Source: Pseudomonadota bacterium
GTDB lineage: Bacteria > Myxococcota > Bradymonadia > UBA4248
Reading direction: 5' to 3'
Length of the DNA: 21,709 nucleotides
NCBI GenBank assembly: GCA_017613855.1
Contig: JAGACY010000251.1
Coordinates: 1 to 21,709, forward strand
A program made the translations under genes and the position numbers. The stretch's first letter is position 1. The number at the start of each line of letters is the position of its first letter. This document shows positions 60 to 18,757 of the stretch, in pieces. Under the pieces are notes generated by a model that searched no databases, was not told the origin of the DNA, and saw nothing but the letters and a program-made list of their open reading frames with translations.

Positions 60-262
60 TTCGGAATTCGCAATGCGGAATGCGGAATTGGATAACAAAC
101 CTAAAGGGAAATCTAAAGATTAGAGAGAATTGCGTTCGTAATGCGTAATGCGTAATGCGTAATTGAGGTTGCCCCACAAACTTCACTCTGAAGCTAAAGC
201 GACTTTAATCCTTTAGAGAGAACCTGGAGAATACCTGAATAATTGCTAATTGCTAATTGTTA
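57..262. repeat. Composite heptamer-repeat element, copy A
   Basis: Three short arrays with a 7-bp period lie at 57-90 (CGGAATG and CGCAATG type units), 129-164 (CGTAATG units) and 238-260 (AATTGCT units). They are separated by spacers that carry TCTAAAG (112-118) and, further right, CTTTAGA (211-217), an inverted pair. CCTGAATAATT (234-244) precedes the right array and recurs in copy B. The element fills the gap between the upstream gene and rel, so it forms most of the rel 5' untranslated region. The units resemble the short tandemly repeated sequences known from cyanobacteria, but the composite layout looks like a small non-coding mobile element. No coding capacity is seen. Confidence 0.7.
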
Positions 263-3764: not shown

Positions 3765-5588
3765 ATGAAAGTATCCCATGGAATCGTAATAGCATTTGCA
3801 TGTTGCGCTATCGCAGGTTGTTCGAATGATTCTAACGGGAATCATACCGCACTTCCAGCCGAATGTTCAGGAGACCACTGTCAGGGCAGTGAGACGCCCG
3901 AACCAGTAGACGGACCTCAATGCGACGAGAATGTCGACTATATGACGGATGCCGAGAATTGCGGTAAATGCGGTCATCCATGCGGCAACGGTACTTGCAA
4001 TAACGGCGTTTGTGTCTGCGATGAAGATTATTTCGACTGCGATGGGAACGACAGTTGCGAAACGTATCAGGAATGTCCATGCAGACCAGGAGATACCCAG
4101 GAATGCTACACAGGAGACGAAAATACAGCGGGTATCGGTGTCTGCAAAAAAGGGCATCATATCTGTGAAATCGGTGAATTTGGCGCCTATTGGGGATTTG
4201 ATTGTCTCGAAGAAGTCGTTCCTTCATTAGACAACTATAAATGCGATCCCGCCGAACCCGACAGGGATAACGATTGCAATGGCATTCCGGATTCCATGCA
4301 GGATGAAGATGGTGATGGCTATACAATCTGTAAAGACGGCAAGCTAAATGATTGCTGTGACAACACCAATATGTGCAATACTTCACGTCCGGAACTCGTC
4401 CACTCGGGAGTTACCATCGACTGCATCGGAAACCAAATCGACGATAACTGCAATGGCGTGGTTGACGATGGCAATATCAACTGCGATGGTTCTCTGGCCA
4501 CGCCTTGTGAAGGTCCCGATTGCCCGTCTGATTCCTGTCATTTTGATTATGGTAACTGCGATATCAATCTCATCTGGAACAATTTGAATAATGAAGACTC
4601 AGCTTTGCTGCTCGCCAAATCGATGGATATTTGTATGGGCAGTTCCAAAAATGAGGACAAAGGAAGCCTGCTTGAATATTCAGTTCATCGTTCATCCAAC
4701 AGTAAAAAACCAGGTCTGGTCGATCCCGCACAAATTCGATTGCTCGAGGGTATGAAAGATAAAGATGGTAAAACGCTCATTCCTCCCCGCATCGGCCATT
4801 CTTTTGCCATGCTGTCCAGCGGCAAGGCTCAGGATGTCTTTGGAAAAGTAGGAACAGGCGACGCCGGATTCAATACTTTTCAACCAGACAGTGTTCCCAA
4901 AGTCTATCTGCAAGCCCATAACAACAAGCTGGAATCCCATGCCAACTGTTCTGCCGGTACGACGACAGACATTTACGATTCAGTCGTGCTGCACCTCAAA
5001 TTACAGGCACCAAAGGATGCCAAGGGATTCAGTTTTGATTTTCGCTTCTTTTCCCGCGAATATCCCTACTTTCTGTGTTCAACCTACAACGACTTTTTCC
5101 TGACGCTGCTTACTGATGAGCAGGGAAATCCACTTGTCAATTCCGACGGCAACATTTCATTCGACAAAGAAAAGAATGCCGTTTCTGTCAACAATGCTTT
5201 CTTTACTGCATGCAGAGCACCGGCCTGCTACGACACCAAAGCCATGGGATTTACAAATGGATCTGAATGCCCGGGTAATTTTACAGGATGCACAGATGAC
5301 CTTTGCGGCAAATGCGACAGTTTTGATGAACTCTATGCCTATTACCCGACTCCCTTTATTGGTTCAGGCAAAAGCAACAGTCCCGGTAACCGGGGAGGCG
5401 GAACAGCCTGGCTTACCACAAAGGCTCCTATCGAAGGCGGTCAAATATTCAATCTCGATTTCTACATTTGGGATACTGGAGACAGTGCGTACGATTCTTC
5501 CGTTATATTAGACAACTTCCGGTGGCTTTGCAGTACAACCGTCGTCGATACAGGTTTTGCTCCTCCTATCGACAATCCCATCAATTAA
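3765..5588 (+). CDS. Cys-rich MopE-like / choice-of-anchor L lipoprotein, copy 1 of 6
   Basis: This 607-residue protein is a predicted surface or outer membrane lipoprotein. The signal peptide ends in the lipobox IAGC (Cys19, followed by Ser, which suggests outer membrane sorting). It has about 40 mature cysteines, most of them before residue 290. Order of parts: CSGDHC (34-39), a short linker, a Stig1-like Cys-rich module (53-150, with NCGKCGHPC), and a MopE-like metal-binding module (165-240, with DNDCNG, DEDGDGY and DDNCNG). A conserved middle region (255-360) and a choice-of-anchor L type domain (404-590, with FSFDFRFF, YNDFFLTLL, GGGTAWLTT and FYIWDTGD) complete it. This copy has almost no Pro/Asp linker and is the most divergent of the six. 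Its function is unknown; ion binding by the Asp-rich loops is inferred. It follows GAGGAGG and ends in its own strong terminator. Confidence 0.85.
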   Translation: MKVSHGIVIAFACCAIAGCSNDSNGNHTALPAECSGDHCQGSETPEPVDGPQCDENVDYMTDAENCGKCGHPCGNGTCNNGVCVCDEDYFDCDGNDSCETYQECPCRPGDTQECYTGDENTAGIGVCKKGHHICEIGEFGAYWGFDCLEEVVPSLDNYKCDPAEPDRDNDCNGIPDSMQDEDGDGYTICKDGKLNDCCDNTNMCNTSRPELVHSGVTIDCIGNQIDDNCNGVVDDGNINCDGSLATPCEGPDCPSDSCHFDYGNCDINLIWNNLNNEDSALLLAKSMDICMGSSKNEDKGSLLEYSVHRSSNSKKPGLVDPAQIRLLEGMKDKDGKTLIPPRIGHSFAMLSSGKAQDVFGKVGTGDAGFNTFQPDSVPKVYLQAHNNKLESHANCSAGTTTDIYDSVVLHLKLQAPKDAKGFSFDFRFFSREYPYFLCSTYNDFFLTLLTDEQGNPLVNSDGNISFDKEKNAVSVNNAFFTACRAPACYDTKAMGFTNGSECPGNFTGCTDDLCGKCDSFDELYAYYPTPFIGSGKSNSPGNRGGGTAWLTTKAPIEGGQIFNLDFYIWDTGDSAYDSSVILDNFRWLCSTTVVDTGFAPPIDNPIN

Positions 5589-5601
5589 GGGAAGTACAAG
5601 C

Positions 5602-5637
5602 TAATAAAGAAATGGGCGAAAGCCCATTTCTTTATTA
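5602..5637 (+). terminator. Terminator after lipoprotein copy 1
   Basis: A perfect 16-bp stem (5602-5617 with 5622-5637) closes on a GAAA tetraloop. The 3' arm ends in TTTCTTTATTA, so it can work as a rho-independent terminator. The A-rich 5' arm would make it active on the other strand too. Confidence 0.82.
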
Positions 5638-5740
5638 AAGATAAGCCAAAGGCTGAACGCACGATCGATTCATCATATAATTCACAGAATTGTGCATTCA
5701 TTTCAAATTGACCATTTTGTCGATTTCAGGATAAAGAATT

Positions 5741-5863
5741 ACGTCCGTTTTTGGACGGTTCAAGCCTCCCCTTCCATCACCAGGGGACTTGAGCCAGCAA
5801 AGAGATAAGTGTTCATGACATATCTGGATATGTTCACATCCACTCTAAAAGGAGCGCCCCATT
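5741..5863 (+). promoter_or_regulatory. Structured leader with three hairpins before the small membrane-protein pair
   Basis: Three stem-loops follow each other. CGTCC/GGACG lies at 5742-5757. A 10-bp stem made of TCAAG/CTTGA and TCCCC/GGGGA lies at 5760-5792, with a two-base bulge. ACATATC/GATATGT lies at 5818-5833 with a two-base loop. A GGAG ribosome site (5850-5853) and ATG 5864 follow. The compact run of hairpins resembles a cis-regulatory RNA, but I do not recognise a known riboswitch class. The last palindrome could instead be a repressor operator. Confidence 0.45.
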
Positions 5864-6247
5864 ATGGCATGTTTTATTGTTCCGGCAACCGAAGCCATTA
5901 TCACAACCATTGTACATAAAGTCATTGCCAAAAAAGAGAGCCAATCGGAAAAGACCGATACGACAACCATTCCCTGGTCGAGAAAGATCAGCTGGTTAAG
6001 CAATATGCTTTGGGGTGGTTCTTTCCTCCTGGCTTTCGAACATATCTGGCATGGTGAAGTTGTCCCATGGTATCCATTCCTGACAGCAATGAGTTCACCC
6101 GACAGTACTGCCGAAATGCTCCATGAAATGAGTACCGTTGGCGTTGCGATGGCCCTCCTCGTCACTGCAGTATGGGGAATCATGCTCGCAGTTGCCCACG
6201 CCATCGAAAAACGCCCTGCTATCGACCAGGAAACAAAGGAACCATAA
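5864..6247 (+). CDS. Small conserved-type membrane protein with FEHxWHGE motif
   Basis: This 127-residue protein is of unknown function. Residues 1-22 are hydrophobic to amphipathic, residues 46-60 and 92-113 look like membrane segments, and the tail is charged. Between the two later segments lies FEHIWHGEVVPW (58-69), with H60, H63 and E65, and then LHEM (86-89). Clustered His and Glu at a membrane boundary could bind a metal or heme, but this is inference. From memory, similar pairs of small proteins occur in other anaerobes; I could not check that. ATG 5864 has GGAG ten bases upstream. The next gene starts two bases after its stop, so the two are almost certainly cotranscribed and translationally coupled. 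Confidence 0.75.
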   Translation: MACFIVPATEAIITTIVHKVIAKKESQSEKTDTTTIPWSRKISWLSNMLWGGSFLLAFEHIWHGEVVPWYPFLTAMSSPDSTAEMLHEMSTVGVAMALLVTAVWGIMLAVAHAIEKRPAIDQETKEP

Positions 6248-6249
6248 TT

Positions 6250-6570
6250 ATGACACTTCTCATCTCAATTTTTGCTGCAGTTATTTTTACTTTTCTTTGG
6301 TACAAAAATGCGCCTGAAGATAAATACAAATTCAGCTTTTTATGCTGGATCTTCTGGGGAGCGTCACTCATGTGGCTCGTCGATGCCATCTTTGAATTTA
6401 TTGAGCAAAAAGAAGAATACTTTACGCCCGCAGCCACAGACATGGTGAATGATGCATTTCTTGGATTATCCGTAGTCGCCCTGGGAATGGTAGTCTGGAT
6501 TGTATATCTCATCATCAAAGATCCCAAACGGGTCGTCAAATCATCACTCATCAAAAAAGAAACGATTTAA
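6250..6570 (+). CDS. Small membrane protein, partner of the preceding gene
   Basis: This 106-residue protein has three predicted membrane segments (about 2-18, 28-51 and 69-89), the acidic stretch EQKEEYFTP before the last one and a basic tail. The function is not recognised. ATG 6250 lies two bases after the TAA of the upstream gene, so coupled translation is expected. A longer in-frame start at 6172 would overlap the neighbour by 76 bases and give a hydrophilic, non-conserved-looking extension, so it is not chosen. A terminator follows at once, which makes the pair a self-contained transcription unit lying between lipoprotein copies 1 and 2. The WGASLMWLVDAIFEF stretch parallels WGGSFLLAFEH in the neighbour, hinting that the two could be related subunits of one complex. 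Confidence 0.75.
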   Translation: MTLLISIFAAVIFTFLWYKNAPEDKYKFSFLCWIFWGASLMWLVDAIFEFIEQKEEYFTPAATDMVNDAFLGLSVVALGMVVWIVYLIIKDPKRVVKSSLIKKETI

Positions 6571-6581
6571 TCTCTTTATAA

Positions 6582-6608
6582 ACACGGTTTAATACCGTGT
6601 TTTTTTTT
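6582..6608 (+). terminator. Terminator of the small membrane-protein pair
   Basis: ACACGG (6582-6587) pairs with CCGTGT (6595-6600) around a seven-base loop and is followed by eight T (6601-6608). It is a typical rho-independent terminator twelve bases after the stop codon. Confidence 0.85.
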
Positions 6609-6746
6609 GGCATTCGCCTCATTTATGTCATTTTTTGCAGCGATTGACTGTATATACTGTGATAGTAACCCCATGCAATAAGGTGACATGCGGAAAAGAT
6701 ATCGCTCAGCATTCATTGAACGGGATGAATTACCATACTTAATGAC

Positions 6747-6776
6747 TTGATCTTGTTACTTCATTTATATATTCTT
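6747..6776 (+). promoter_or_regulatory. Candidate promoter of lipoprotein copy 2
   Basis: TTGATC (6747-6752) and TATTCT (6770-6775) are 17 bases apart. The -10 lies within TTTATATATTCTT (6764-6776), a 13-base string that recurs exactly at 11005-11017 before copy 4 at nearly the same distance from the start codon. The recurrence, rather than the match to consensus, is the main support. Confidence 0.4.
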
Positions 6777-6824
6777 TTTCTGGTTGTATAACCTTTCAGA
6801 ACGACACACAGAGGATGTGAAATT

Positions 6825-8741
6825 ATGAGAATATCCCGTTTAATGGCATTTGCATTTTCCTGTTGTTTAATCACAAGCTGTTCTGACGACTCGAAAACCA
6901 AAGATAATACCGAGCCAGCAACTCCGGATTGTCAGGGAAGTGATTGTCCCGCCACTCCAACCGATCCCACGCCAAGTGATCCGCAAGACCCGGATCCCAA
7001 AGATCCAACGGATCCTCCTTTAGACCCACCGGAACCCGAATGTGGCGAGGGTATCGATCTCATGACCGATATCAATAACTGCGGAACTTGCGGTCATACC
7101 TGTGTCAACGCAATCTGCGAGGAGGGTGCGTGCAAATGCGAAGAGGATTACTTCGATTGTGATGAAGATGGTACGTGCGAAACGTTGCACGAATGCATTT
7201 GTAAACCAGGTCAAACCGACCCATGCTACGAAGGGGATGAAGGCACCGAAGGGGTTGGCAGATGTAAATCTGGTTATCGCAATTGTATCGTGGATGAAAA
7301 TGGTGCCTATTGGGATAGCAGTGAATGCATCGATCAGGTTTTACCGGCACAAACACTTAGTGAATTTAGCTGTGATGTCAACACCCCCGATATAGACAAC
7401 GATTGCAACGGCATACCAGATGCCCAGCAGGATGAAGACCAGGATGGCTTTGCCATTTGCAAGGATGGTGCAATTCTGGACTGCTGTGACAGCCAGAAAT
7501 GGTGCAACACGACCAAACCGGAACTCATCAATCCCGGTGTAACGATAGACTGCAATGACAATCAGCTCGACGATAACTGCAACGGCACCGTCGATGAGGG
7601 TGAAATCAGCTGCAGCGAGCCTATCCCGTGCCAGGGACCTGACTGTGGTGTTGAAGCATGCAAATTCTCTTATGGTGATTGTGACCAGGGGTTGGTATGG
7701 AACAATTCCAATAACGCCGACTCTGCAATGCTGCTCGCCAAATCGATGGATATCTGTATGGGGGCAAGCTCAGATCCCACCAAGGGATCCCTAATCGAAT
7801 ATTCCGTTCATCGTTCGGGATACCCCTCCAATACGGTTGCCCCACAGCAAATCAACATTTTGCCGGGAATGAAAGACAAATCCGGCAATACACTGATCAA
7901 GCCTAGACTGGGGCATACGTTTGCACTGCTCTCAACTGGAGATGCTTTAGATGTGGGAGGCGGCTTAGAAACTGGAGATAAAGCTTACTCCAAGAGTGAA
8001 TATGACCCCGCTACTTTTTACGGGGTCAGTCTTGAGGACACGGTTCCAGAGCTTTATCTGTCAGCCCACGGCAATCAATTACAAACACATCCGAATTGTA
8101 AAGGGGCCACAAATACTCGCATTATCGATTCAGTCGTTCTCCACCTAAAACTTCAGGCACCGCAAGACGCTAAGGGGTTCAGTTTCGATTTTCGCTTCTT
8201 TACCCGGGAATTTCCTGAGTATGTATGTACAGATTACAACGACTTCTTCCTAACCCTGATGACAGATGAGAATGGTGCACCACTCCAGAACGCAGATGGC
8301 AATATTTCTTTTGATACAGCTGGCAACCCCATTTCTGTCAACAATGCCTACTTTACAACCTGCACAGCGCCTTCATGTTATGACAGTACAGCCTTTTCCT
8401 ACTTTGGTGGGGGGGCCTGCCCTGCAAACTATTCGGGATGCACAGAGGATGGTCATTGCGGAAAATGTGATTCCTTCAATGAACTCTATGCATATCATCC
8501 CAACCCTTATGCTGGAGCAGTAGACTATTCCCATTCTGCATGCGGTGGCGGTACAGCATGGCTGACGACAACAGCACCTATTACTGGCGGGCAAGTATTC
8601 AACCTCGATTTTTACATTTGGGACACCAAGGATTCCAACAAAGACTCGACCGTTATTCTCGACAATTTCCGCTGGCTCTGTGATGCAGCATTGAATACCG
8701 GCTTTGCCCCACCGGCAGAAAATCCCATTGAGATCAATTAA
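6825..8741 (+). CDS. Cys-rich MopE-like / choice-of-anchor L lipoprotein, copy 2 of 6
   Basis: This 638-residue copy is the longest. The lipobox is ITSC with Cys19. CQGSDC (36-41) follows, then the longest Pro/Asp/Thr linker of this subfamily (42-72, repeating DP and TDP). The Stig1-like module covers 73-168. The MopE-like module covers 188-262, where DEDQDGF replaces the usual DEDGDGY. The choice-of-anchor L type domain covers 434-620. A unique insert at 377-405 (with SEYDPATFYG) lengthens the region before VPELYLSAH. The C-terminus ends in ENPIEIN, as in copy 3 only. Start ATG 6825 has GAGG ten bases upstream. It shares an 83-bp identical tract with copy 3. Its role is not known; it is presumably displayed on the outer membrane. 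Confidence 0.85.
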   Translation: MRISRLMAFAFSCCLITSCSDDSKTKDNTEPATPDCQGSDCPATPTDPTPSDPQDPDPKDPTDPPLDPPEPECGEGIDLMTDINNCGTCGHTCVNAICEEGACKCEEDYFDCDEDGTCETLHECICKPGQTDPCYEGDEGTEGVGRCKSGYRNCIVDENGAYWDSSECIDQVLPAQTLSEFSCDVNTPDIDNDCNGIPDAQQDEDQDGFAICKDGAILDCCDSQKWCNTTKPELINPGVTIDCNDNQLDDNCNGTVDEGEISCSEPIPCQGPDCGVEACKFSYGDCDQGLVWNNSNNADSAMLLAKSMDICMGASSDPTKGSLIEYSVHRSGYPSNTVAPQQINILPGMKDKSGNTLIKPRLGHTFALLSTGDALDVGGGLETGDKAYSKSEYDPATFYGVSLEDTVPELYLSAHGNQLQTHPNCKGATNTRIIDSVVLHLKLQAPQDAKGFSFDFRFFTREFPEYVCTDYNDFFLTLMTDENGAPLQNADGNISFDTAGNPISVNNAYFTTCTAPSCYDSTAFSYFGGGACPANYSGCTEDGHCGKCDSFNELYAYHPNPYAGAVDYSHSACGGGTAWLTTTAPITGGQVFNLDFYIWDTKDSNKDSTVILDNFRWLCDAALNTGFAPPAENPIEIN

Positions 8742-8780
8742 TTCAGCAGCATTTTCGTGATACCCGACGAACACAATTCT

Positions 8781-8894
8781 CTCTCCTCTACACAGCCGTT
8801 CATCATAGGCTCTGTAGGAGGAGAGTGTTGATAAGCTCTGAGCTTGAGGCTTAGAGCCTGGAGTTGGGGGGAATAGTCTTCATGCTCCAGGCTC
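8781..8894. repeat. Two inverted repeats between copies 2 and 3
   Basis: The first inverted repeat is CTCTCCTC (8781-8788) with GAGGAGAG (8818-8825), extendable by imperfect pairing inward. It has no T-run, so it is a doubtful terminator. The second is a perfect 10-bp pair, GAGCCTGGAG (8854-8863) with CTCCAGGCTC (8885-8894), flanked by the further pair CTTA/TAAG. Together they fill most of the 247-base gap. Their role may be transcript end or mRNA stability. Confidence 0.5.
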
Positions 8895-8988
8895 AAAGTT
8901 CTAAGCAACAATCAACATAGTGGCCATACATCATAGCCTGATTGAATAGTAGGATCTGGTAGATAGTTTTGTGAAAGGACGAGCAACG

Positions 8989-10800
8989 ATGAAGATTTCC
9001 CGTTTATTCATAGTTATAAGCATCTGCTGCGCAGTTGCCGGCTGTTCCCAGGAATCGACGTACAAAGCAGATTCATTGAGTGGAGATAACACGAACTGCC
9101 AGGGGAATGACTGTACCAACGATCAGCAGAAACCGACAGATCCCCCAGCAGATCCACAAGATCCAACAGATCCGCCTGTGGATCCACCTTCCCCTGAATG
9201 CGGTGAGGACATCGACCTCATGAACGACGTCAATCATTGCGGGGCTTGCGGTCATGCCTGTGTCAATGCAACCTGCAGCGAGGGTAAATGTGTATGCGAA
9301 GATGATTATGTCGACTGTGATGATAACGGCACATGCGAATCATTGAATGAGTGCATCTGCCGCCCAGGCCAAACCACCCCCTGTTATGAAGGTGACGAAG
9401 GCACCGAGGGAATTGGGCAATGTCATGGCGGCTACCACAATTGCATCGTAGATGAAACAGGTTCTTATTGGGATAACAGTGCTTGCATCGATCAGGTTTT
9501 ACCGGCACAAACGCTTGCAGAGTTTACCTGTGATGCCAGCATCCCCGATATAGACAGCGATTGCAACGGCATTGCAGATGCGCAACAGGATGAAGACCAG
9601 GATGGCTTTGCCATTTGCAAGGATGGTGCAATTCTGGACTGCTGTGACAGCCAGAAATGGTGCAACACCACCAAGCCGGAACTCATCAATCCCGGCGTAA
9701 CCATTGACTGCAACGACAATCAGCTAGACGATAACTGCGATGGCACTGTAGACGAGGGGGAACTCAGCTGCAGCGAGCCAATTCCTTGTGAGGGCGAGGA
9801 CTGCGGCGTCGAAGCATGCAAATTTGATTATGGCGATTGTGATCAGGGGCTGGAATGGAACAATTCCAACAACACAAAATCCGCCCTCCTACTCGCCCAA
9901 TCCATGGATATCTGCATGGGCAAAAGCTCCGACCCTGCCAAAGGCGCCCTGCTTGAGTATTCCCTCCATCGTTCTGGCTACGACAAGAAAAAAGTAGCTC
10001 CTGAACAAGTCAATATTTTACCGGGAATGAAAGACAAAAAAGGCAAGACATTGATTAAACCGAGACTGGGACATACGTTTGCCCTGCTCTCAACAGGGGA
10101 AGCAAAAGACGTCTATAACGGGGTATCGACAGAAAGCCAGCTCTATTCTGACAGTTATTTCGACCCAAGTATTTCCATGTTTATGATCAGTGTCGAAGAC
10201 AAAATTCCTGACCTTTATCTATCGGCGCATAACCATAAGCTGCAATCAAGCAAAAGTTGTCCATCCGAAAAGGATCCACGCATTATTGATTCTGTCGTTC
10301 TCCATCTCAAGCTTCAGGCACCGCAGAATGCCAAAGGATTTAGCTTCGATTTTCGTTTCTTTACCCGTGAATATCCGGAATATCTATGTTCAGAATACAA
10401 TGATTTCTTCCTGACTTTGCTTACGGATGAGAAAGGCAAACCGCTTCAGAATAAAGATGGCAATATTTCATTGGATAAGAAAGGGTATCCTATTTCAGTG
10501 AATACAGCCTTCTTTACAACGTGTTATGGGTGTGACTCTTTTGATGAGCTCTATGCTTACTACCCCAAACCCTATAAAGGCACTCTCAACGCGGATACCT
10601 GCGGCGGAGGCACAGCCTGGCTTACGACGCAAGCCCCCATCGAAGGCGGACAGATCTTCAATCTCGATTTTTATATTTGGGACACACATGATTCCGGAAT
10701 GGATTCTACAGTGTTACTCGACAATTTCAGATGGCTCTGTGACGCCTCATTGAATACCGAATTTGCGCCTCCCGCCGAGAACCCCATTGAGATCAATTAA
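8989..10800 (+). CDS. Cys-rich MopE-like / choice-of-anchor L lipoprotein, copy 3 of 6
   Basis: This copy has 603 residues from ATG 8989, preceded by AAAGGACGAG. A GTG at 8971 in the same frame is rejected because it would put six polar residues before the signal peptide. The lipobox is VAGC, Cys19. CQGNDC (37-42) follows, then a linker of DPP and DPQ type repeats (48-69), the Stig1-like module (71-167), the MopE-like module (187-261) and the choice-of-anchor L type domain (432-584). It lacks about 35 residues found in the other copies between FFTTC and CDSF, so the usual cysteine loop is gone (TTCYGCDSF at 510-518). It is richer in lysine than copy 2, and ends in ENPIEIN. The MopE-like part is nearly identical in DNA to copy 2. 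Confidence 0.85.
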   Translation: MKISRLFIVISICCAVAGCSQESTYKADSLSGDNTNCQGNDCTNDQQKPTDPPADPQDPTDPPVDPPSPECGEDIDLMNDVNHCGACGHACVNATCSEGKCVCEDDYVDCDDNGTCESLNECICRPGQTTPCYEGDEGTEGIGQCHGGYHNCIVDETGSYWDNSACIDQVLPAQTLAEFTCDASIPDIDSDCNGIADAQQDEDQDGFAICKDGAILDCCDSQKWCNTTKPELINPGVTIDCNDNQLDDNCDGTVDEGELSCSEPIPCEGEDCGVEACKFDYGDCDQGLEWNNSNNTKSALLLAQSMDICMGKSSDPAKGALLEYSLHRSGYDKKKVAPEQVNILPGMKDKKGKTLIKPRLGHTFALLSTGEAKDVYNGVSTESQLYSDSYFDPSISMFMISVEDKIPDLYLSAHNHKLQSSKSCPSEKDPRIIDSVVLHLKLQAPQNAKGFSFDFRFFTREYPEYLCSEYNDFFLTLLTDEKGKPLQNKDGNISLDKKGYPISVNTAFFTTCYGCDSFDELYAYYPKPYKGTLNADTCGGGTAWLTTQAPIEGGQIFNLDFYIWDTHDSGMDSTVLLDNFRWLCDASLNTEFAPPAENPIEIN

Positions 10801-10812
10801 TGGATGCAGCCG

Positions 10813-10920
10813 GCGCGTATTTGCGCAGCAAAAAGCGCCGGTTCAGGGGTAGGCGCGTATTTGCGCAGCAAAAAGCGCCGGTTCAGGGGTAGGCGCGTAT
10901 TTGCGCAGCAAAAAGCGCCG
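10813..10920. repeat. 40-bp tandem repeat, 2.7 copies
   Basis: Units start at 10813, 10853 and 10893 and appear identical where they overlap; the third is cut after 28 bases. Each unit can fold with GGCGC against GCGCC and contains TGCGCA. It begins 12 bases after the stop of copy 3. There are no spacers, so it is not a CRISPR array. Perfect identity between units suggests recent expansion by slippage or unequal exchange. Confidence 0.9.
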
Positions 10921-10938
10921 CAGGGGGCTTGCCCCCTG
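10921..10938. terminator. Perfect GC hairpin after the 40-bp repeats
   Basis: CAGGGGGC and GCCCCCTG form an 8-bp perfect stem with a two-base loop, directly joined to the last 40-bp unit. ATATATCAAAAAATATAG follows instead of a T-run, so on the plus strand it is an imperfect intrinsic terminator. It may stop or stabilise the copy 3 transcript. Confidence 0.45.
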
Positions 10939-10987
10939 ATATATCAAAAAATATAGCTGTGCAGGTGAATGACTTTTGCACAAGGTA

Positions 10988-11017
10988 TTGCTATCGGGAG
11001 ATGTTTTATATATTCTT
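10988..11017 (+). promoter_or_regulatory. Candidate promoter of lipoprotein copy 4
   Basis: TTGCTA (10988-10993) and TATTCT (11011-11016) are 17 bases apart. The -10 overlaps TTTATATATTCTT (11005-11017), identical to the string upstream of copy 2. The start codon is 66 bases beyond the start of this string, against 61 for copy 2. Confidence 0.38.
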
Positions 11018-11070
11018 CTATGGGCTTTTATTATCATAAAGGTCTATAGATTTGATACCAGGAGGTATAT

Positions 11071-12915
11071 ATGAGAATATCCACTCTGTTAGCGCTCTCG
11101 ATGGCTTGCTGCATTTTTGCCGGTTGTTCAGACGACACGCTTGTCATCAATAAAACGCCCTCCACATCCAAGCCAGGCTGTCAGGGTAAAAACTGTTCCG
11201 GTGAGACACAAAAACCATCTCAACAGGATCCGCAAGACCCCGGGCAAAAACCGGATCAGCCAACAGGCCCAGATAATCCAACCGATCCTCCCCCAAGTGA
11301 CACAAATTGTGATGGTGCAGATTTAAGCACAGATCCCCTGAATTGCGGCAGCTGCGGCCATTCATGCGGTGAAGGAACGTGTCATAGTGGTTTGTGCGTA
11401 TGCAATGATAATTTCCAGGACTGCAACGGAGATGGATACTGCGAAACAGAAGGCGATTGCGCATGTAAAAAAGGCGATACCAAGCCGTGCTATCAGGGAG
11501 ACGAGGGGACCGAGGGCGTGGGTGTCTGCAAAGCAGGACATTATGAGTGCATCGTCGATGAATTCGGAGCTTATTGGAATCCCGAGTGTGTAGGCCAGGT
11601 GATGCCTGCGCAGGATATCAGTGGTTTTGTGTGTGATCTGAGCGATCCCAATCGGGATAACGACTGCAATGGCGTTCCCGACTCAGTTCAGGACGAAGAC
11701 GGCGACGGCTATCCCATCTGCAAAAATGGCAGCCTTTACGATTGCTGTGACAACCAGAAGATGTGCAACACATCCCGTACAGATCTCGTCCACCCCGGTG
11801 TTACCCGCGACTGCAAAGGGAATAGCCTGGATGACAACTGCAATGGGATCACGGATGAAGATGAGATCAGCTGCGATCAGGCCGTTTCGACATGTCAAGG
11901 CAAGGACTGTGAAACGCAGGCCTGTGAGTTTGATTATGGCGACTGCGATGTCAACCTGATGTGGAACAACTCCAATACGAACGAGTCCGCATTGTTGCTG
12001 GCAAAATCGATGGATATCTGCATGGGCACTTCTTCAGATCCCAATAAAGGCTCACTTTTGGAGTATTCCCTGCACCGTTCCGGATCGAACCTAAAGATCA
12101 ATCAAGCTCAGGTCAACATTCTTAAGGGAATGCGCGACAACTCTGGACAAGTCCTCATCAAGCCCAGAATTGGCCAGTCTTTTGCGATGCTCTCTTCAGG
12201 GTATGCACGGGATGTCTATGGTGGTGTAAGCGGCGATAGAACATTTTCCCAAGGTGATACGCCCCCAGACGTTTACCTGAAGGCCCACAATTATGTCCTC
12301 GAAACACATCCGAACTGTTCATTGGGTTCAACGTCAAAGATCAATGATTCGGTCGTACTTCATCTTAAACTTAAGGCGCCCCAAAATGCCAAGGGATTCA
12401 GCTTTGACTTTAGATTTTTCTCGCGTGAATACCCGACTTTCCTATGTACATCCTTTAATGATTTCTTCTTAACGCTGCTTACGGATGAACAAGGCCATCC
12501 CATTGTCAATGAGGACGGTAATATTTCATTTGATAAAAAAGGCCATGCGGTCTCGATCAACAATGCATTCTTTACAACCTGTGTTGCACCGAGCTGCAAC
12601 GGCGCGGGATCTTGTCCCGGCAATTTTGATGATGGTTGCCAGAATAACAAATGTGGTCAATGTGACAGTTTCGAAGAGCTTTATGCCTATACGCAAAATC
12701 CCTACAACGGTCACAGCGGCGATGGCGGAGGTACGGCATGGCTTACGACATCAGCACCGATTTCCGGGGGGCAGGTCTTTAACCTGGATTTCTATATTTG
12801 GGATACAACTGATCAAATACTGGATTCTTCGGTCATCCTCGATAACTTCAAGTGGCTTTGTGATGCACAATTAGATACGGGATTTGCGCCCCCGATTGAC
12901 AACCCAATTAACTAA
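11071..12915 (+). CDS. Cys-rich MopE-like / choice-of-anchor L lipoprotein, copy 4 of 6
   Basis: This 614-residue protein starts at ATG 11071 with a consensus AGGAGG (11060-11065). The lipobox is FAGC, Cys19, followed by SDDT. Order: CQGKNC (37-42), a Gln/Pro/Asp linker (48-78), a Stig1-like module (80-173, with NCGSCGHSCGEGTC), a MopE-like module (193-268, with DNDCNG, DEDGDGY and DDNCNG), and a conserved middle region (285-382). The choice-of-anchor L type domain covers 425-597. It belongs with copies 5 and 6: all three share the CETEGDCAC, GVCKAGHYECIV and DLSDPNRDNDCNG stretches and the DNPIN terminus. The short stretch between FAMLSSG and VYLKAH (385-400) differs from every other copy. 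Function is unknown; disulfide bonding outside the cytoplasm is expected from the cysteine content. Confidence 0.85.
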   Translation: MRISTLLALSMACCIFAGCSDDTLVINKTPSTSKPGCQGKNCSGETQKPSQQDPQDPGQKPDQPTGPDNPTDPPPSDTNCDGADLSTDPLNCGSCGHSCGEGTCHSGLCVCNDNFQDCNGDGYCETEGDCACKKGDTKPCYQGDEGTEGVGVCKAGHYECIVDEFGAYWNPECVGQVMPAQDISGFVCDLSDPNRDNDCNGVPDSVQDEDGDGYPICKNGSLYDCCDNQKMCNTSRTDLVHPGVTRDCKGNSLDDNCNGITDEDEISCDQAVSTCQGKDCETQACEFDYGDCDVNLMWNNSNTNESALLLAKSMDICMGTSSDPNKGSLLEYSLHRSGSNLKINQAQVNILKGMRDNSGQVLIKPRIGQSFAMLSSGYARDVYGGVSGDRTFSQGDTPPDVYLKAHNYVLETHPNCSLGSTSKINDSVVLHLKLKAPQNAKGFSFDFRFFSREYPTFLCTSFNDFFLTLLTDEQGHPIVNEDGNISFDKKGHAVSINNAFFTTCVAPSCNGAGSCPGNFDDGCQNNKCGQCDSFEELYAYTQNPYNGHSGDGGGTAWLTTSAPISGGQVFNLDFYIWDTTDQILDSSVILDNFKWLCDAQLDTGFAPPIDNPIN

Positions 12916-12985
12916 TACAGCAGGAACGCATTCTTCCGTAAAACCATGTCATGCACAAACCTGACACAGGACTGGATGAAAGGAC

Positions 12986-13033
12986 GCCACCACACGGTCA
13001 ACAAAGCAACGATACTCGACGACCGAAGGTGGC
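12986..13033 (+). promoter_or_regulatory. Leader hairpin before copy 5
   Basis: GCCACC (12986-12991) pairs with GGTGGC (13028-13033), and inside it GGTC (12996-12999) pairs with GACC (13021-13024). No T-run follows, so it is not a simple terminator. It lies 59 bases upstream of the chosen start of copy 5, and may be a leader structure or the 3' end of the copy 4 transcript. Confidence 0.4.
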
Positions 13034-13091
13034 AATTGGCTTCCGTTTCATTCCTAGGGTTTGCCATTTCTTTTCGCGATATGGAGATATT

Positions 13092-14924
13092 ATGAAAATA
13101 ACCGAGCTGCTTGCAGTGTCTTTGGTTTGTTGCATGTTTACCGGATGTTCCGATGATTCACTGGTCATCAGCAAAACCAATCCTTCCACAGATTCAGAAT
13201 GTCATGGAAAGAATTGTTCCGAGCAGCCCGACAAGCCATCCGAACCTGATCCCCAGGATCCGGATTCTACGCCAGATCCTGTCGATCCGGTGAATCCACC
13301 TTCTGGGGATTCGACATGTGAGGGGATTGATTTGCAGACAGATCCCCTCAATTGCGGCACTTGTGGTCATTCTTGCGGTGAAGGGACCTGTCAAAGCGGT
13401 TTATGCGTATGCAATGAGAATTATCAGGACTGCAATGGTGATGGTTACTGCGAAACAGAGGGGGATTGTGCCTGTCAGAAGGGCCAAACCGAACCATGCT
13501 ATCAGGGGGACGAAGGAACCGAAGGTGTGGGTGTCTGCAAAGCCGGTCATTATGAATGCATCGTCGATGAATTGGGCGCCTATTGGAATCCAGAGTGCAT
13601 CGACCAGGTAATACCGGCCCAGGATATCAGCGGCTTCATCTGTGATTTGAGCGATCCCAATCGGGATAACGACTGCAATGGCACTCCAGACTCACTCCAG
13701 GATGAAGACGGGGATGGTTATTTCATCTGCAAAGACGGCACCCTTTATGATTGTTGTGACAACGGGAAAATGTGCAACACTTCGCGTCCGGATCTCGTTC
13801 ATCCCGGCGTTTCCCTCGACTGTAAGGGCAACAATCTCGATGATAACTGCAATGGCATTACGGACGAAGATAGTGTCAGCTGTGACGAAGTGGTATCAAC
13901 ATGCGAAGGCAGTGATTGTGAAACCCAGGCCTGTCAATTCGATTATGGCGACTGCGATGTGGACCTAATCTGGAATAACTCCAATAATTCCGATTCGGCA
14001 TTATTGCTGGCAAGATCGATGGACATCTGCATGGGGGCATCTTCAGATCCCACCAAAGGTTCACTCCTCGAGTATTCGCTGCACCGTTCCGGATCTGACA
14101 AAAAAGTTAAAGCTGCTCAAGTCAATATACTTAAGGGAATGAAAAACAAAAAAGGCAAAACCCTCATCAAGCCCAGAATTGGTCAGTCTTTTGCTTTGCT
14201 CTCATCCGGTAATGCGCTGGATACCTATCAGGGGGTAGGAGAGGGCCACGAACCCTTCACGAAAGGTGGAGAGGTGCCTTCAGTCTACCTAAAAGCGCAC
14301 AAAAAGAAGCTTGAATCGCATCCAAATTGTGATGGCGGTGATCCTATTATCAACGACTCAGTCGTTCTTCACCTCAAGATACAAGCCCCTCAAAAAGCCA
14401 AAGGATTCAGTTTTGATTTTAGATTTTTCTCGCATGAATACCCAGTTTATCTATGTACTGAGTTCAATGACTTTTTCCTGACGCTGCTGACAGATGAAGC
14501 CGGCAAGCCCCTTGTCAATAAAGATGGCAATATTTCATTTGATAAAAACGGCAATGCCGTTTCGGTGAATAATGCATTCTTTACAACTTGTGTCGCCCCG
14601 AGCTGCACCAAATCAAGCGGGTGCCCAGGTAATTTCGACGAAGGATGCAAAGGTGGGCATTGCGGCAAGTGTGACAGTTATGAAGAGCTTTATGCCTATT
14701 GCCCAAAGCCCTACGACGGAGATGACGGAAATGGCGGCGGCACCGCATGGCTTACGACCTCAGCCCCGATTTCCGGAGGTCAGATCTTTAATCTGGATTT
14801 TTATATCTGGGATACAGGCGATCAATCTTATGACTCTACGGTGATTCTTGATAACTTCCAGTGGCTTTGTGATGCGACATTAGACACCGGATTTGCCCCA
14901 CCGATAGATAATCCAATCAATTAA
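13092..14924 (+). CDS. Cys-rich MopE-like / choice-of-anchor L lipoprotein, copy 5 of 6
   Basis: This copy has 610 residues from ATG 13092, with GGAG at 13083-13086. The frame is open back to 12951, but those 47 extra residues are polar, have no ribosome site and would bury the signal peptide, so they are not used. The lipobox is FTGC, Cys19, then SDDSLVISKT, shared with copy 6. CHGKNC (37-42), a Pro/Asp linker (48-72), the Stig1-like, MopE-like and choice-of-anchor L type modules follow in the order of copy 4. The hinge region reads YQGVGEGHEPFTKGGE, unlike its siblings, and FFSHEYP replaces FFSREYP. It is rich in lysine in the middle region. It ends in DNPIN. Its short upstream gap (176 bases) has no clear terminator, so read-through from copy 4 is possible. 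Confidence 0.85.
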   Translation: MKITELLAVSLVCCMFTGCSDDSLVISKTNPSTDSECHGKNCSEQPDKPSEPDPQDPDSTPDPVDPVNPPSGDSTCEGIDLQTDPLNCGTCGHSCGEGTCQSGLCVCNENYQDCNGDGYCETEGDCACQKGQTEPCYQGDEGTEGVGVCKAGHYECIVDELGAYWNPECIDQVIPAQDISGFICDLSDPNRDNDCNGTPDSLQDEDGDGYFICKDGTLYDCCDNGKMCNTSRPDLVHPGVSLDCKGNNLDDNCNGITDEDSVSCDEVVSTCEGSDCETQACQFDYGDCDVDLIWNNSNNSDSALLLARSMDICMGASSDPTKGSLLEYSLHRSGSDKKVKAAQVNILKGMKNKKGKTLIKPRIGQSFALLSSGNALDTYQGVGEGHEPFTKGGEVPSVYLKAHKKKLESHPNCDGGDPIINDSVVLHLKIQAPQKAKGFSFDFRFFSHEYPVYLCTEFNDFFLTLLTDEAGKPLVNKDGNISFDKNGNAVSVNNAFFTTCVAPSCTKSSGCPGNFDEGCKGGHCGKCDSYEELYAYCPKPYDGDDGNGGGTAWLTTSAPISGGQIFNLDFYIWDTGDQSYDSTVILDNFQWLCDATLDTGFAPPIDNPIN

Positions 14925-15021
14925 ACATATAAACGCATTCTCCCCTCCTAGGATCTTCTGGATCATACTACGACAAATAAAAACCAGGGACAGCTTCAGC
15001 ATGGCCTTAGAAAAGGAGAAT

Positions 15022-15069
15022 ATGAACTACGGGGATTGTCGGCAATCCCCTTCTCTTTCTATACCATAA
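15022..15069 (+). CDS. Possible 15-residue leader peptide before copy 6
   Basis: AAAAGGAG precedes ATG 15022, which opens a 15-codon frame (MNYGDCRQSPSLSIP) ending at TAA 15067-15069, 27 bases before copy 6. The hairpin at 15031-15050 lies inside this frame. The combination of ribosome site, tiny frame and terminator-like hairpin resembles an attenuator, but the frame is short enough to be chance. Confidence 0.25.
   Translation: MNYGDCRQSPSLSIP
15031..15060 (+). terminator. Terminator-like hairpin upstream of copy 6
   Basis: GGGGATTG (15031-15038) and CAATCCCC (15043-15050) form a perfect 8-bp stem with a TCGG loop, followed by TTCTCTTTCT. It is the best terminator candidate for copy 5. Alternatively it is an attenuator of copy 6. 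Confidence 0.6.
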
Positions 15070-15096
15070 CCAGCCATTTCGATCGTTGGAGGTTAT

Positions 15097-16959
15097 ATGA
15101 AAATATCCGATCTGTTTGTATATTCCCTGATATGCTGCATGTTTGCCGGTTGTTCCGATGATTCGCTTGTGATCAGCAAAGCACAGCCATCAAAGACTCC
15201 TGAATGTCAAGGTAATCATTGTTCAGGGAACACGGATACGCCCTCCGAACCAGAGGAGCAAAAGCCAGGTCCTCAACAACCAGAGACTCCCACAGATCCG
15301 GAAGAGCCAACGCCTACGGAGATCGTCTGTGATGGTGCAGACCTTAAGACCGATCCCCTCAATTGCGGCACATGCGGTCACTCATGTGGTGAAGGTACCT
15401 GCCATAGCGGGATATGTGTATGTAGTGAGAATTTTCAGGACTGTGACGGTGATGGTGCCTGCGAAACCGAAGGCGATTGCGCATGTCAAAAGGGGGATAC
15501 CAAACCATGCTATCAGGGAGATGATGGCACCGAAGGTGTGGGTGTCTGTAAAGCAGGACATTATGAGTGCATCGTCAATGAATTTGGAGCATTCTGGAAT
15601 CCTGAATGCGTCGGCCAGGTTATGCCGGCACAGGATATAAGCGGTTACGTCTGTGATTTGTCCGATCCCAACAGGGATAACGATTGCAATGGCATCCCCG
15701 ACTCACTCCAGGATGAAGACGGCGATGGCTATTCCATCTGTAAAAATGGCAGCCTCTACGATTGCTGTGATAACCAAAAGATGTGCAATACAACGCGACC
15801 GGATCTCGTCCATCCCGAGGTTGCACTCGACTGCAAGGGAAATAGTCTGGATGATAACTGCAATGGGATTACGGACGAAGATGATATCGGCTGCGATGAG
15901 GTAGTTTCAACATGTCAGGGCAAGGACTGTGAAACACAGGTATGTCAATTTGACTATGGCAATTGCGATATTGACCTTTCCTGGAACGACTCGAGCAATA
16001 ACGAATCAGCATTATTGCTGGCGAAATCGATGGATATCTGCATGGGAGCATCCTCTGATCCCCAAAAAGGCGGGCTTCTCGAGTATTCGCTGCATCGTTC
16101 GGGCAATTTACACAGCGTGGCCCCCGAACAGGTCAATATTCTAAAAGGAATGAAAGACAGCAAAGGAGCAACGCTCATCAAGCCAAGAATAGGTCAATCC
16201 TTTGCGATGTTATCCTCGGGCATTGCAAAGGATGTGTATCATGGTGTTGGAATAAAAGATCAGGGCTACTCTTATGCGAATGACGCTGTCCCCTCTGTAT
16301 ACCTCAATGCGCATGGGGGCAAACTCGAATCTCACAAGAAATGCGAGAGTGGTTCGTATGCGGAGATTCGGGATTCAGTCGTTTTGCATCTGAAAATGCA
16401 AGCCCCCCAAAATGCCAAGGGATTCAGCTTCGATTTCAGATTCTTTTCGCGCGAATATCCCTTCTATGTCTGTTCATCATTCAATGATTTCTTCCTCACC
16501 CTGCTCACAGACGAAAATGGCAATCCTCTTGTGAATGCAGATGGCAATATTTCTTTTGACGAAAATGGCAATGCTGTTTCGGTGAATAATGCTTTCTTTA
16601 CGACCTGCACCGCACCTGCATGTTACGATAGTATGGCCTTTGGCAGTCTTGATGGAGCTTGTCCGGGCAATTATGAACAGGGTTGCCAGAACAATCACTG
16701 CGGAAATTGCAGTAATGTCGAAGAGCTCTATGCCTATTATCCAGATCCCTATATTCACGACGGACGTGGTGGTGGCACAGCCTGGCTGCAAACAACAGCA
16801 CCAATCTCCGGAGGCCAAATATTCAATCTGGATTTCTACATTTGGGACACCGGCGATGCTGCATGGGATTCTTCTGTCATTCTCGATAACTTCCAGTGGC
16901 TTTGTGATGCAACCTTAAACACCGGATTTGCGCCCCCAATTGACAACCCAATCAATTAG
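15097..16959 (+). CDS. Cys-rich MopE-like / choice-of-anchor L lipoprotein, copy 6 of 6
   Basis: This 620-residue protein starts at ATG 15097 after GGAGG (15088-15092). The lipobox is FAGC, Cys19. CQGNHC (37-42) follows. The linker (48-76) is Glu/Pro/Gln rich rather than Asp/Pro rich, which sets it apart. The Stig1-like module (78-171), MopE-like module (about 191-266) and choice-of-anchor L type domain (about 431-602) match copies 4 and 5. CGNCSNVEELYAYYP replaces the CxxCDSF motif of the others, and WLQTTAP replaces WLTTxAP. It ends in DNPIN. No clear terminator follows before the next gene 240 bases on. It is the last member of the array. Confidence 0.85.
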   Translation: MKISDLFVYSLICCMFAGCSDDSLVISKAQPSKTPECQGNHCSGNTDTPSEPEEQKPGPQQPETPTDPEEPTPTEIVCDGADLKTDPLNCGTCGHSCGEGTCHSGICVCSENFQDCDGDGACETEGDCACQKGDTKPCYQGDDGTEGVGVCKAGHYECIVNEFGAFWNPECVGQVMPAQDISGYVCDLSDPNRDNDCNGIPDSLQDEDGDGYSICKNGSLYDCCDNQKMCNTTRPDLVHPEVALDCKGNSLDDNCNGITDEDDIGCDEVVSTCQGKDCETQVCQFDYGNCDIDLSWNDSSNNESALLLAKSMDICMGASSDPQKGGLLEYSLHRSGNLHSVAPEQVNILKGMKDSKGATLIKPRIGQSFAMLSSGIAKDVYHGVGIKDQGYSYANDAVPSVYLNAHGGKLESHKKCESGSYAEIRDSVVLHLKMQAPQNAKGFSFDFRFFSREYPFYVCSSFNDFFLTLLTDENGNPLVNADGNISFDENGNAVSVNNAFFTTCTAPACYDSMAFGSLDGACPGNYEQGCQNNHCGNCSNVEELYAYYPDPYIHDGRGGGTAWLQTTAPISGGQIFNLDFYIWDTGDAAWDSSVILDNFQWLCDATLNTGFAPPIDNPIN

Positions 16960-17162: not shown

Positions 17163-17200
17163 CGAAGTGTGTGACTGAACTCTTTTTTTGGAGAATGTAC

Positions 17201-18757
17201 ATGAAACCCTTCAATTTATTAGCTTATGCGGTCTTCATCGCTTTTTTGTGCATAGCACCTATTTTTGCTTTTGCACAAGATACCGTTGGCCGCCTTATCG
17301 ACTTACCAAATGTGGAGAACGACGACTCCGCCCTCTCCATGACACATGCCATTACAGAAGCACTGGGAAATGCCGGGCATGTCACATTCTCCGAAAGTGA
17401 GATGAATTCAACTGCACTCAATTCAGGTATGAGAGCAGGTTATTGGTCATCCAACGAAGACATTGCAAAGCTCAACGAAAAAATCAGACACGATGCTCTC
17501 GTCAAGCTTTCCTATCAGAAAAAAGGGAAAAAGGCTTCTATCGTTGTAACCATCATCAATGCGTACACCGGTGAGGTCATGGCAGAACTTGAAAGAAGCC
17601 TTAAAAAGAAAAAAGGCAAACTGACCAAGGATGATACCAAAGCAATTATACGTGGTATCAACCAGGTAACGGCCGAGATTATTCCCAAAGAATATGCAAC
17701 AGAAATTGTGATTAAAATCACATCCACTCCCCCGGGAGCATCTGTTATTCGTGAAGGCGTCACCCTTGGTGTTACACCGTATGAATACAAAACCCAATCG
17801 AAAGATGGGACGGAAAATTGGATCATCACTTATCCGGACCGTGAAGCAATTATGAAGGTTATCTCCTTTGTGGATTCTGGTTCCTATGAGGTCGTTTTTC
17901 CTGAACCCGTCGATCTTCCAAGTGATGACACCGGCAGATACGGTGCTGTAAAAGGTGGAACAGGGCGCCCCATTTTCTTACTTGGTTTTAATGTCAGTCC
18001 CACAATCCGCTCTTTGGATTCATCGGCCAAATTGGGCAGACCAACCAGCTACACGACACAGGTCTTCCCCGTTTATGGCTTTGACTTCGATTTCTTCCCA
18101 TTTGGTATTGGCGTCAATAGCGATTATCTTCAGGGCCTGGGACTTACTGCCAGCTTCGGATTCGGTTTTCTTCAAAGCGACATGAGAATCGAAAAAGAAT
18201 TATCCACGCAGCATGCCTGCAAGGCAAAAGGTGATGTCATTACCTGTGATACAACTTACTGGAGATTTAACGCAGACCTGGTTTATCGCCTCCTGCTTCA
18301 GAAACGCGGCGATAAACTGAATCCCGATGGACTCGCACTTGATTTCTTTGCCGGTTTTATGATGGCACAATATACCATCAAAACCAATCCTACCTATTTA
18401 GGACATGATTATACAGGTGTTAATGCAGGTCTGCGCTTCTCCACACCGCTCGGGTTACGTCAATTCCGCATGGATATTGGTGCCGCGGCAGATATCAGTA
18501 TTAAACAGCCTCAGATTCAAAAACTCGCCAAATGGGGTTCGATGGTTAAATCCAGTTGGGGCCTCACAGTGGATGCACACTTTAAATATGATATCTATAA
18601 AGGCTTCTTCGTACGCGCGGGTTATGCACTTACCTACATGAATACCCAATTCGGCGGTACAGGATGCCTCGATAAACAATGCACCGCCCCCTCCGATGCT
18701 AAGAGCACGGATCTTTACCACGAAATTCAGTTGGGATTGGGCTACATGCTCTACTAA
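17201..18757 (+). CDS. Secreted PEGA-domain protein with C-terminal outer membrane beta-barrel
   Basis: This 518-residue protein begins at ATG 17201, six bases after GGAG. An in-frame GTG at 17171 and an ATG at 17195 lie at or before the ribosome site and are less likely. A signal peptide (1-25, ending AFA) leads into an alpha/beta domain (about 28-165), loosely like the periplasmic parts of TolB- or CsgG-type proteins. A PEGA domain follows at about 168-235 (STPPGASVIREGVTLGVTPYEY). Residues 255-518 show alternating aromatic and glycine-rich strands and a C-terminal YMLY, typical of an outer membrane barrel. PEGA domains are found in surface-associated proteins. It has its own candidate promoter and a strong terminator. 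Being next to the lipoprotein array on the same strand, it may help assemble or anchor them; this is inference. Confidence 0.78.
   Translation: MKPFNLLAYAVFIAFLCIAPIFAFAQDTVGRLIDLPNVENDDSALSMTHAITEALGNAGHVTFSESEMNSTALNSGMRAGYWSSNEDIAKLNEKIRHDALVKLSYQKKGKKASIVVTIINAYTGEVMAELERSLKKKKGKLTKDDTKAIIRGINQVTAEIIPKEYATEIVIKITSTPPGASVIREGVTLGVTPYEYKTQSKDGTENWIITYPDREAIMKVISFVDSGSYEVVFPEPVDLPSDDTGRYGAVKGGTGRPIFLLGFNVSPTIRSLDSSAKLGRPTSYTTQVFPVYGFDFDFFPFGIGVNSDYLQGLGLTASFGFGFLQSDMRIEKELSTQHACKAKGDVITCDTTYWRFNADLVYRLLLQKRGDKLNPDGLALDFFAGFMMAQYTIKTNPTYLGHDYTGVNAGLRFSTPLGLRQFRMDIGAAADISIKQPQIQKLAKWGSMVKSSWGLTVDAHFKYDIYKGFFVRAGYALTYMNTQFGGTGCLDKQCTAPSDAKSTDLYHEIQLGLGYMLY

What the first reader, a model, noticed from the sequence alone, without database searches (positions are those of the whole stretch)
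3765..16959. Tandem array of six large Cys-rich lipoprotein paralogues
Six genes of the same build cover 13 kb: lipobox, CxGxxC, variable linker, Stig1-like module, MopE-like module and choice-of-anchor L type domain. Core motifs are conserved, but linkers and two loops before and within the last domain differ in every copy. That pattern suits a surface repertoire under diversifying selection, such as ligand, prey, host or phage contact. The combination of MopE-like metal-binding and anchor-L modules in one lipoprotein family has no assigned function that I know of.
Basis: partly seen in the sequence, partly recalled or inferred. Interest (0 to 1): 0.76.

Follow-up and report, generated by a model that had tools for sequence, protein, structure and literature searches.

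The report
Lipoprotein array with shared stalks
An uncultured relative of myxobacteria carries six neighbouring genes for probable surface lipoproteins whose stalks are copied between genes while several of their end domains stay distinct and recur in related sequences, which looks like a small set of binding specificities on a common stem.

Summary
Six paralogues (603-638 aa) lie at 3765-16959, + strand: lipobox, acidic Pro-rich linker, Cys-rich and Asp-rich stalk, C-terminal choice-of-anchor L head (NF038133, 6 of 6 above cut-off). Two small genes interrupt the array after copy 1. The lineage is an uncultured myxococcotan family.

A sister genome has this locus with four copies found. No region has pN/pS above 1, so diversifying selection is not shown, though linkers and two head loops are the least constrained mature parts.

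New: stalk and head have different histories. Stalks group by genome, with gene-conversion tracts in the sister genome and between copies 2 and 3. Heads of copies 3 and 4 and of sister copy hX group with counterparts from other sequences; heads 2 and 6 have no clear counterpart. AU tests reject 7 of 8 alternatives (groups chosen after seeing the trees). A second locus does not show this.

The head is predicted to be a jelly-roll, weakly CBM4/MAM-like. The MopE label does not imply copper: no conserved histidine in that module. Best reading: lipid-anchored adhesins or receptors with a homogenised stalk and separately kept heads. Ligand unknown; surface exposure inferred.

The parts
3765..5588 (+). 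copy g1, 607 aa lipoprotein
   Evidence: NF038133 47.2 bits; syntenic orthologue in sister genome G277 (76.5%)
5864..6247 (+). mA, small membrane protein (by inspection) between g1 and g2, 87.5% in sister genome
6250..6570 (+). mB, small membrane protein (by inspection), 80% in sister genome
6825..8741 (+). copy g2, 638 aa lipoprotein
   Evidence: NF038133 41.2 bits
7428..7510 (+). 83-nt stretch of g2 identical to g3 9586-9668, inside a gene-conversion tract in the Asp-rich module
8989..10800 (+). copy g3, 603 aa lipoprotein (alternative start 8971); lacks the Cys-rich insertion of head loop 2
9586..9668 (+). g3 side of the 83-nt identical stretch
11071..12915 (+). copy g4, 614 aa lipoprotein
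   Evidence: NF038133 50.0 bits
13092..14924 (+). copy g5, 610 aa lipoprotein (alternative start 12951)
   Evidence: NF038133 45.4 bits
15097..16959 (+). copy g6, 620 aa lipoprotein
   Evidence: NF038133 47.8 bits; structure model
15097..15153 (+). g6 signal peptide and lipobox (residues 1-19)
   Evidence: sequence
15154..15324 (+). g6 CxGxxC and acidic Pro-rich linker (residues 20-76), mostly pLDDT under 50
15325..15882 (+). g6 stalk: Cys-rich (Stig1-like) and Asp-rich (MopE-like) modules, residues 77-262
15958..16938 (+). g6 head: choice-of-anchor L domain (residues 288-614), predicted jelly-roll sandwich
16216..16362 (+). g6 variable head loop 1 (residues 374-422)
16606..16770 (+). g6 variable head loop 2 (residues 504-558), with extra cysteines
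17171..18757 (+). probable outer-membrane beta-barrel protein with a PEGA-like segment, immediately downstream; candidate partner only
   Evidence: OMP_b-brl 28.3 bits (cut-off 28.7) and PEGA 17.8 (cut-off 20.8), both just under cut-off; one match in 8 of 9 genomes of the order and two in the ninth

Best explanation
These are probably outer-membrane lipoproteins that display a binding head on a disulfide- and calcium-stabilised stalk. An N-terminal lipid holds the protein, a flexible acidic Pro-rich linker and a Cys/Asp-rich stalk carry it outward, and a C-terminal jelly-roll head (choice-of-anchor L) binds a glycan or protein ligand, with loops 1 and 2 as the likely contact region. Tandem copies provide a small set of head types. 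Gene conversion between copies keeps the stalk uniform within a genome, while heads are kept distinct, as expected if each head has its own partner. Shown here: architecture, array, copy-number difference, conversion tracts, stalk/head discordance at this locus. Predicted: head fold. Inferred: lipidation, surface exposure, calcium, ligand binding, contact loops.
Confidence: 0.45

Rival explanations
1. Rapidly diversifying surface repertoire: loops and linkers change under positive selection from host, prey or phage.
For: Linker, loop 1 and loop 2 have higher pN than every stalk or head-core region in orthologue pairs and carry indels. Copy number differs. Array dS (1.3-1.8) exceeds that of neighbours (0.47-0.87), compatible with import of divergent alleles.
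Against: No region has pN/pS above 1 (weak because of saturation); whole-gene dN/dS against the sister is about 0.11; some head types recur instead of turning over.
Confidence: 0.2
2. Ordinary paralogues of a structural envelope or matrix lipoprotein. Linkers and loops vary because they are unconstrained, and copy number tracks dosage.
For: Strong constraint in the core and weaker constraint in loops fit relaxed constraint. The family is multicopy in most of the order: 36 NF038133 matches, 1-9 per genome, 9 of 9 genomes. At the second locus stalk and head share one history.
Against: Dosage alone does not explain why heads escape the conversion that homogenises the stalk at this locus.
Confidence: 0.25
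3. Copper or other metal acquisition or handling proteins like MopE.
For: 27 of 70 aligned members hit PF11617 Cu-binding_MopE.
Against: MopE* binds copper through His132, His203 and kynurenine from Trp130 (PMC3423442, passages). In 70 members the Asp-rich module has no His column above 26 of 70; the best-conserved His (406, 60 of 70) is in the head, so a metal site there is not excluded.
Confidence: 0.07
4. Polymorphic lipoprotein toxins with cognate immunity genes, like SitA/SitI of myxobacteria.
For: Multicopy lipoproteins in a myxococcotan; SitA families are multicopy lipoproteins (PMC13184517, passages).
Against: Gaps after g2, g3, g4 and g5 are 247, 270, 176 and 172 bp; the largest ORF contained in one is 64 aa, on the minus strand (gap ORFs were not compared by sequence). 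C-termini are homologous across copies, not swapped domains.
Confidence: 0.03

Closest known systems
NCBIfam NF038133 choice-of-anchor L domain proteins
   Same: C-terminal domain scores 41.2-50.0 bits against a cut-off of 27 in all six.
   Different: Anchoring is by an N-terminal lipobox, with no C-terminal sorting tag seen; arrayed; fused to a Cys/Asp-rich stalk.
Stig1 (PF04885) and Cu-binding_MopE (PF11617) modules
   Same: Aligned members hit them, and the window copies share their Cys and Asp patterns.
   Different: Window copies fall below detection; histidines are not conserved in the Asp-rich module.
TraA/TraB kin-recognition receptor of Myxococcus xanthus (PMC13184517, passages read)
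   Same: Works-like comparison only: variable recognition domain, cysteine-rich repeats, surface anchor, partner gene in the operon.
   Different: No homology tested; anchor at the opposite end; several copies here; the downstream barrel is not shown to be TraB-like.
Surface lipoprotein families shaped by recombination, for example Borrelia (PMC11389397, search listing and abstract start only)
   Same: Paralogous lipoproteins with recombination among loci.
   Different: Here conversion homogenises the stalk and spares the head; no expression-site system was seen, though none was searched for specifically.

Membership tests
choice-of-anchor L domain (NF038133) | score above curated cut-off | tested here: met
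   6 of 6 copies at 41.2-50.0 bits, cut-off 27
choice-of-anchor L domain (NF038133) | C-terminal sorting anchor beside the domain (recalled as the origin of the name; not part of the model and not required for membership) | tested here: not met
   by inspection, proteins end in NPIN or NPIEIN shortly after the domain; lipobox is N-terminal
Cu-binding_MopE (PF11617) | Pfam hit in the window copies | tested here: not met
   no hit at E<=1 in 6 of 6; 27 of 70 aligned members hit at E<=0.01
Cu-binding_MopE (PF11617) | conserved histidine copper ligands in the Asp-rich module | tested here: not met
   best His column in the module 26 of 70; Asp 206, 208, 210 and 222 invariant in 70
Stig1 (PF04885) | Pfam hit in the window copies | tested here: not met
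   none at E<=1 in 6 of 6; 17 of 70 aligned members hit at E<=0.01
Outer-membrane surface lipoprotein | signal peptide with lipobox Cys | tested here: met
   Cys19 preceded by G or S in 6 of 6; by inspection, no signal-peptide program was run
Outer-membrane surface lipoprotein | surface exposure | not testable with these tools
   needs experiment
TraA-type recognition receptor | C-terminal MYXO-CTERM sorting tag | tested here: not met
   by inspection, C-termini end in NPIN or NPIEIN with no hydrophobic tail
TraA-type recognition receptor | homotypic binding by the variable domain | not testable with these tools
   needs binding assays
SitA-type polymorphic toxin | cognate immunity gene after each copy | tested here: not met
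   gaps of 172-270 bp; largest contained ORF 64 aa, minus strand
CBM4 or MAM jelly-roll domain | clear structural match | tested here: inconclusive

The most novel reading that the evidence does not exclude
A multi-receptor recognition system in an uncultured myxococcotan lineage. Each species carries several receptors with a genome-specific, conversion-homogenised stalk, perhaps matched to a shared outer-membrane partner such as the adjacent beta-barrel, and older head types shared across species that each recognise a different partner (kin, prey or glycan).
Probability: 0.22. Interest if true: 0.75.

Novelty: new variant of a known kind. Interest (0 to 1): 0.5.

Why it matters
I found no function assigned to choice-of-anchor L proteins: searches of the held open-access library for the name or the Pfam number returned no papers. 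This array offers a handle. The stalk and head follow different evolutionary rules, so ligand specificity should lie in the head and can be tested one head type at a time. If the typed-head reading is right, it is a bacterial repertoire in which recombination preserves a common stem while distinct specificities are kept.

Tried and rejected
Copper reading: disfavoured by the lack of conserved His in the Asp-rich module. A 24-aa Asp-rich MopE* peptide quoted in PMC3423442, scanned against Pfam, gave no hit; uninformative at that length. Profile search of solved structures: three matches, all E above 0.7, taken as noise. Phylum of G004 (28 genomes): one match at E<=1e-45, 2.0e-47, far weaker than in the phylum of G007. 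Single-operon idea: terminator-like stems lie after g1, after mB and before g6, but terminator-like and promoter-like site numbers are close to those of shuffled sequence (14 against 12.7; 25 against 23.2), so nothing is concluded. Fixed pairing with the downstream barrel: it lies next to a lipoprotein in 3 of 9 genomes (G277, G211, G141); in G235 the barrel starts 208 bases from a contig end, so its upstream neighbour cannot be seen; too few to call a pair. Second locus as a replicate of stalk/head discordance: negative; row G216_b in that call was mis-extracted and is disregarded. My first frame for mB was wrong (the dN/dS of 1.25 there is an artefact); corrected. In one search my merging rule fused two adjacent sister genes, so its tandem tally (16 of 38) is not used. 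The protein search did not list window copy g5, so that list is not complete.
Full report
WHAT IS THERE. Six + strand genes of one build lie at 3765-16959. They encode 603-638 aa proteins with 40-44 Cys: lipobox at Cys19, CxGxxC, an acidic Pro-rich linker, a Cys-rich and an Asp-rich module, then a C-terminal choice-of-anchor L domain in 6 of 6. Upstream are RelA/SpoT-like and GreA-like genes (named by inspection). Between g1 and g2 lie two small genes, membrane proteins by inspection. Downstream are a probable outer-membrane beta-barrel protein with a PEGA-like segment (both Pfam matches just under cut-off), an APH-fold kinase on the other strand and a Ser/Thr-kinase-like gene (by inspection).

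MODULE NAMES. Stig1 and MopE are not detected in the six themselves at E<=1 but are in aligned members at E<=0.01: MopE 27 of 70, Stig1 17 of 70. The MopE label should not be read as copper. In MopE* copper sits on His132, His203 and kynurenine-130 (PMC3423442, passages). In 70 members D206, D208, D210 and D222 are invariant, while no His column in the module exceeds 26 of 70. The best-conserved His, 406 in 60 of 70, is in the head. A DxDGDG ladder suggests calcium (inference). The same paper reports that calcium protected MopE from proteolysis during purification.

LINEAGE. No whole genome is held for the window. The nearest genomes lie in the phylum of Enhygromyxa salina, that is Myxococcota: 11 of 377 genomes drawn have a match at E<=1e-45. 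All 9 genomes held of one order match. In the family (8 genomes), RelA is 84-85% identical in five and 68% in a sixth; G277 and G235 have no RelA match at E<=1e-100, so those assemblies are incomplete or diverged there. All nine genomes of the order carry the anchor-L family, 1-9 matches each, 36 in all; 0 of 14 control genomes do.

SISTER LOCUS. Genome G277 has GreA 98.8%, g1 76.5%, mA 87.5%, mB 80%, g2 69.8%, h4 (74.6% to g4), hX (split by a contig break), barrel 93%, APH 82% and kinase 78%. Its four lipoproteins equal P0011, P0012, P0005 and P0003 over all residues available, 591 of 608 for P0003. Each of those is listed with a longest contig of 50,113 bases, so I read them as one locus; that they share one contig is inferred from the equal length. 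Four copies were found, against six here. g2 and h4 are adjacent in G277, so g3 has no counterpart between them. A missed copy between mB and g2 is not strictly excluded, since G277 has a contig break there and the protein list missed the window's own g5.

SELECTION. Whole-gene dN/dS for g1, g2 and g4 against the sister is 0.105-0.115; dS is 1.3-1.8 against 0.47-0.87 for GreA, mA, barrel, APH and kinase. By region, pooled orthologue pN/pS is highest in the signal peptide (0.50), linker (0.32), loop 1 (0.31) and loop 2 (0.30), and lowest in head core 3 (0.10); nothing exceeds 1. Synonymous sites are near saturation, so positive selection could be missed. This neither proves nor excludes diversifying selection.

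GENE CONVERSION. In the sister, h4 and hX have pS 0.06-0.12 and pN 0 in the four windows starting at codons 120-180; windows at 200 and 220 have pS 0.07 and 0.13 with pN 0.04; windows at 100 and 240 are transitional (0.28, 0.42); the rest are 0.57-1.03. Over the tract 192 of 196 variable sites match in the N-terminal piece and 84 of 92 in the C-terminal piece, each 0 of 2000 permutations. The contig break falls in this tract, but the separately held protein P0003 covers it whole. In the window, g2 and g3 share 83 identical bases (7428-7510 and 9586-9668) and a longer tract with pS 0.22-0.35 (56 of 58 sites, 0 of 2000). Of 23 comparisons without correction, other low values were g4/g6 (6 of 2000 by segment, 12 by run), g4/g5 (17 by run, 51 by segment), g1/g6 (18 by run), s1/sh4 (19 by segment) and g2/s2 (22 by segment); I make nothing of these.

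STALK AND HEAD DISAGREE. With 16 sequences, the stalk tree (residues 77-262) groups copies by genome: SIS_h4+SIS_hX 98/98, g4+g5+g6 100/98, g2+g3 93/91. The head tree (288-614) groups P0004+g4+SIS_h4 98/96, SIS_hX+P0007 100/98 and g3+P0013 99/98. Not everything fits: heads g2 and g6 have no clear counterpart, sister g2 does not group with window g2 in the head tree, g5 joins SIS_hX+P0007 only weakly (62/10), and g1 groups with sister g1 in both trees. The genomes behind P0004, P0006, P0007 and P0013 are unknown to me. AU tests reject genome clades for the head in 4 of 4 trials (p 6.6e-6, 8.3e-4, 0.011, 0.027) and type clades for the stalk in 3 of 4 (9.5e-16, 2.1e-4, 2.3e-6; g3+P0013, p 0.064, not rejected). 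The clades were named after seeing the trees, so these p values are optimistic. At a second locus of longer paralogues (907-968 aa frames) both modules group by genome; the pattern is therefore specific to this locus as far as tested.

MECHANISM. The most economical reading is a lipid-anchored adhesin or receptor with a common stalk and several heads. Within-genome conversion keeps stalks alike, which is expected if stalks share a partner or export route. Heads are kept apart, which is expected if they bind different things. TraA of Myxococcus is a useful works-like comparison (variable domain plus cysteine-rich repeats; PMC13184517, passages), but nothing shows homology. The adjacent barrel has one match in 8 of 9 genomes and two in the ninth but is seen next to a lipoprotein in only 3 of 9, so it is a candidate partner and no more.

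LITERATURE. Searches for choice-of-anchor L, PF26766, choice-of-anchor with NCBIfam and at least two of Stig1, MopE, Myxococcota returned no papers in the held open-access library; MopE with myxobacteri returned three listings on other subjects by title and start of abstract. Subscription papers are not covered.

VERDICT.

Noticed in passing
window 10812-10920: Perfect tandem repeat, 2.7 copies of a 40-bp unit, partly self-complementary by inspection, just after g3 and before g4.
   Followed up: no
window 5864-6570: Two small membrane-type proteins between g1 and g2; among loci L001-L101 tblastn found them only in the sister genome G277.
   Followed up: partly
L090 5468-13071, L091 3715-11643, L098 10736-15481: A second locus in relatives carries longer paralogues (about 907-931 aa in these three) with extra Cys repeats beside one shorter copy.
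   Followed up: partly
window 3765-16959 against flanking genes: Synonymous divergence from the sister genome is about twice as high in the array genes as in most flanking genes, although GC3 is similar to that of the barrel gene; import of divergent alleles or a locally raised rate are possible causes.
   Followed up: partly
window 137-163, 2603-2634, 2825-2855: Three short 7-bp tandem repeat arrays flank the RelA-like gene.
   Followed up: no
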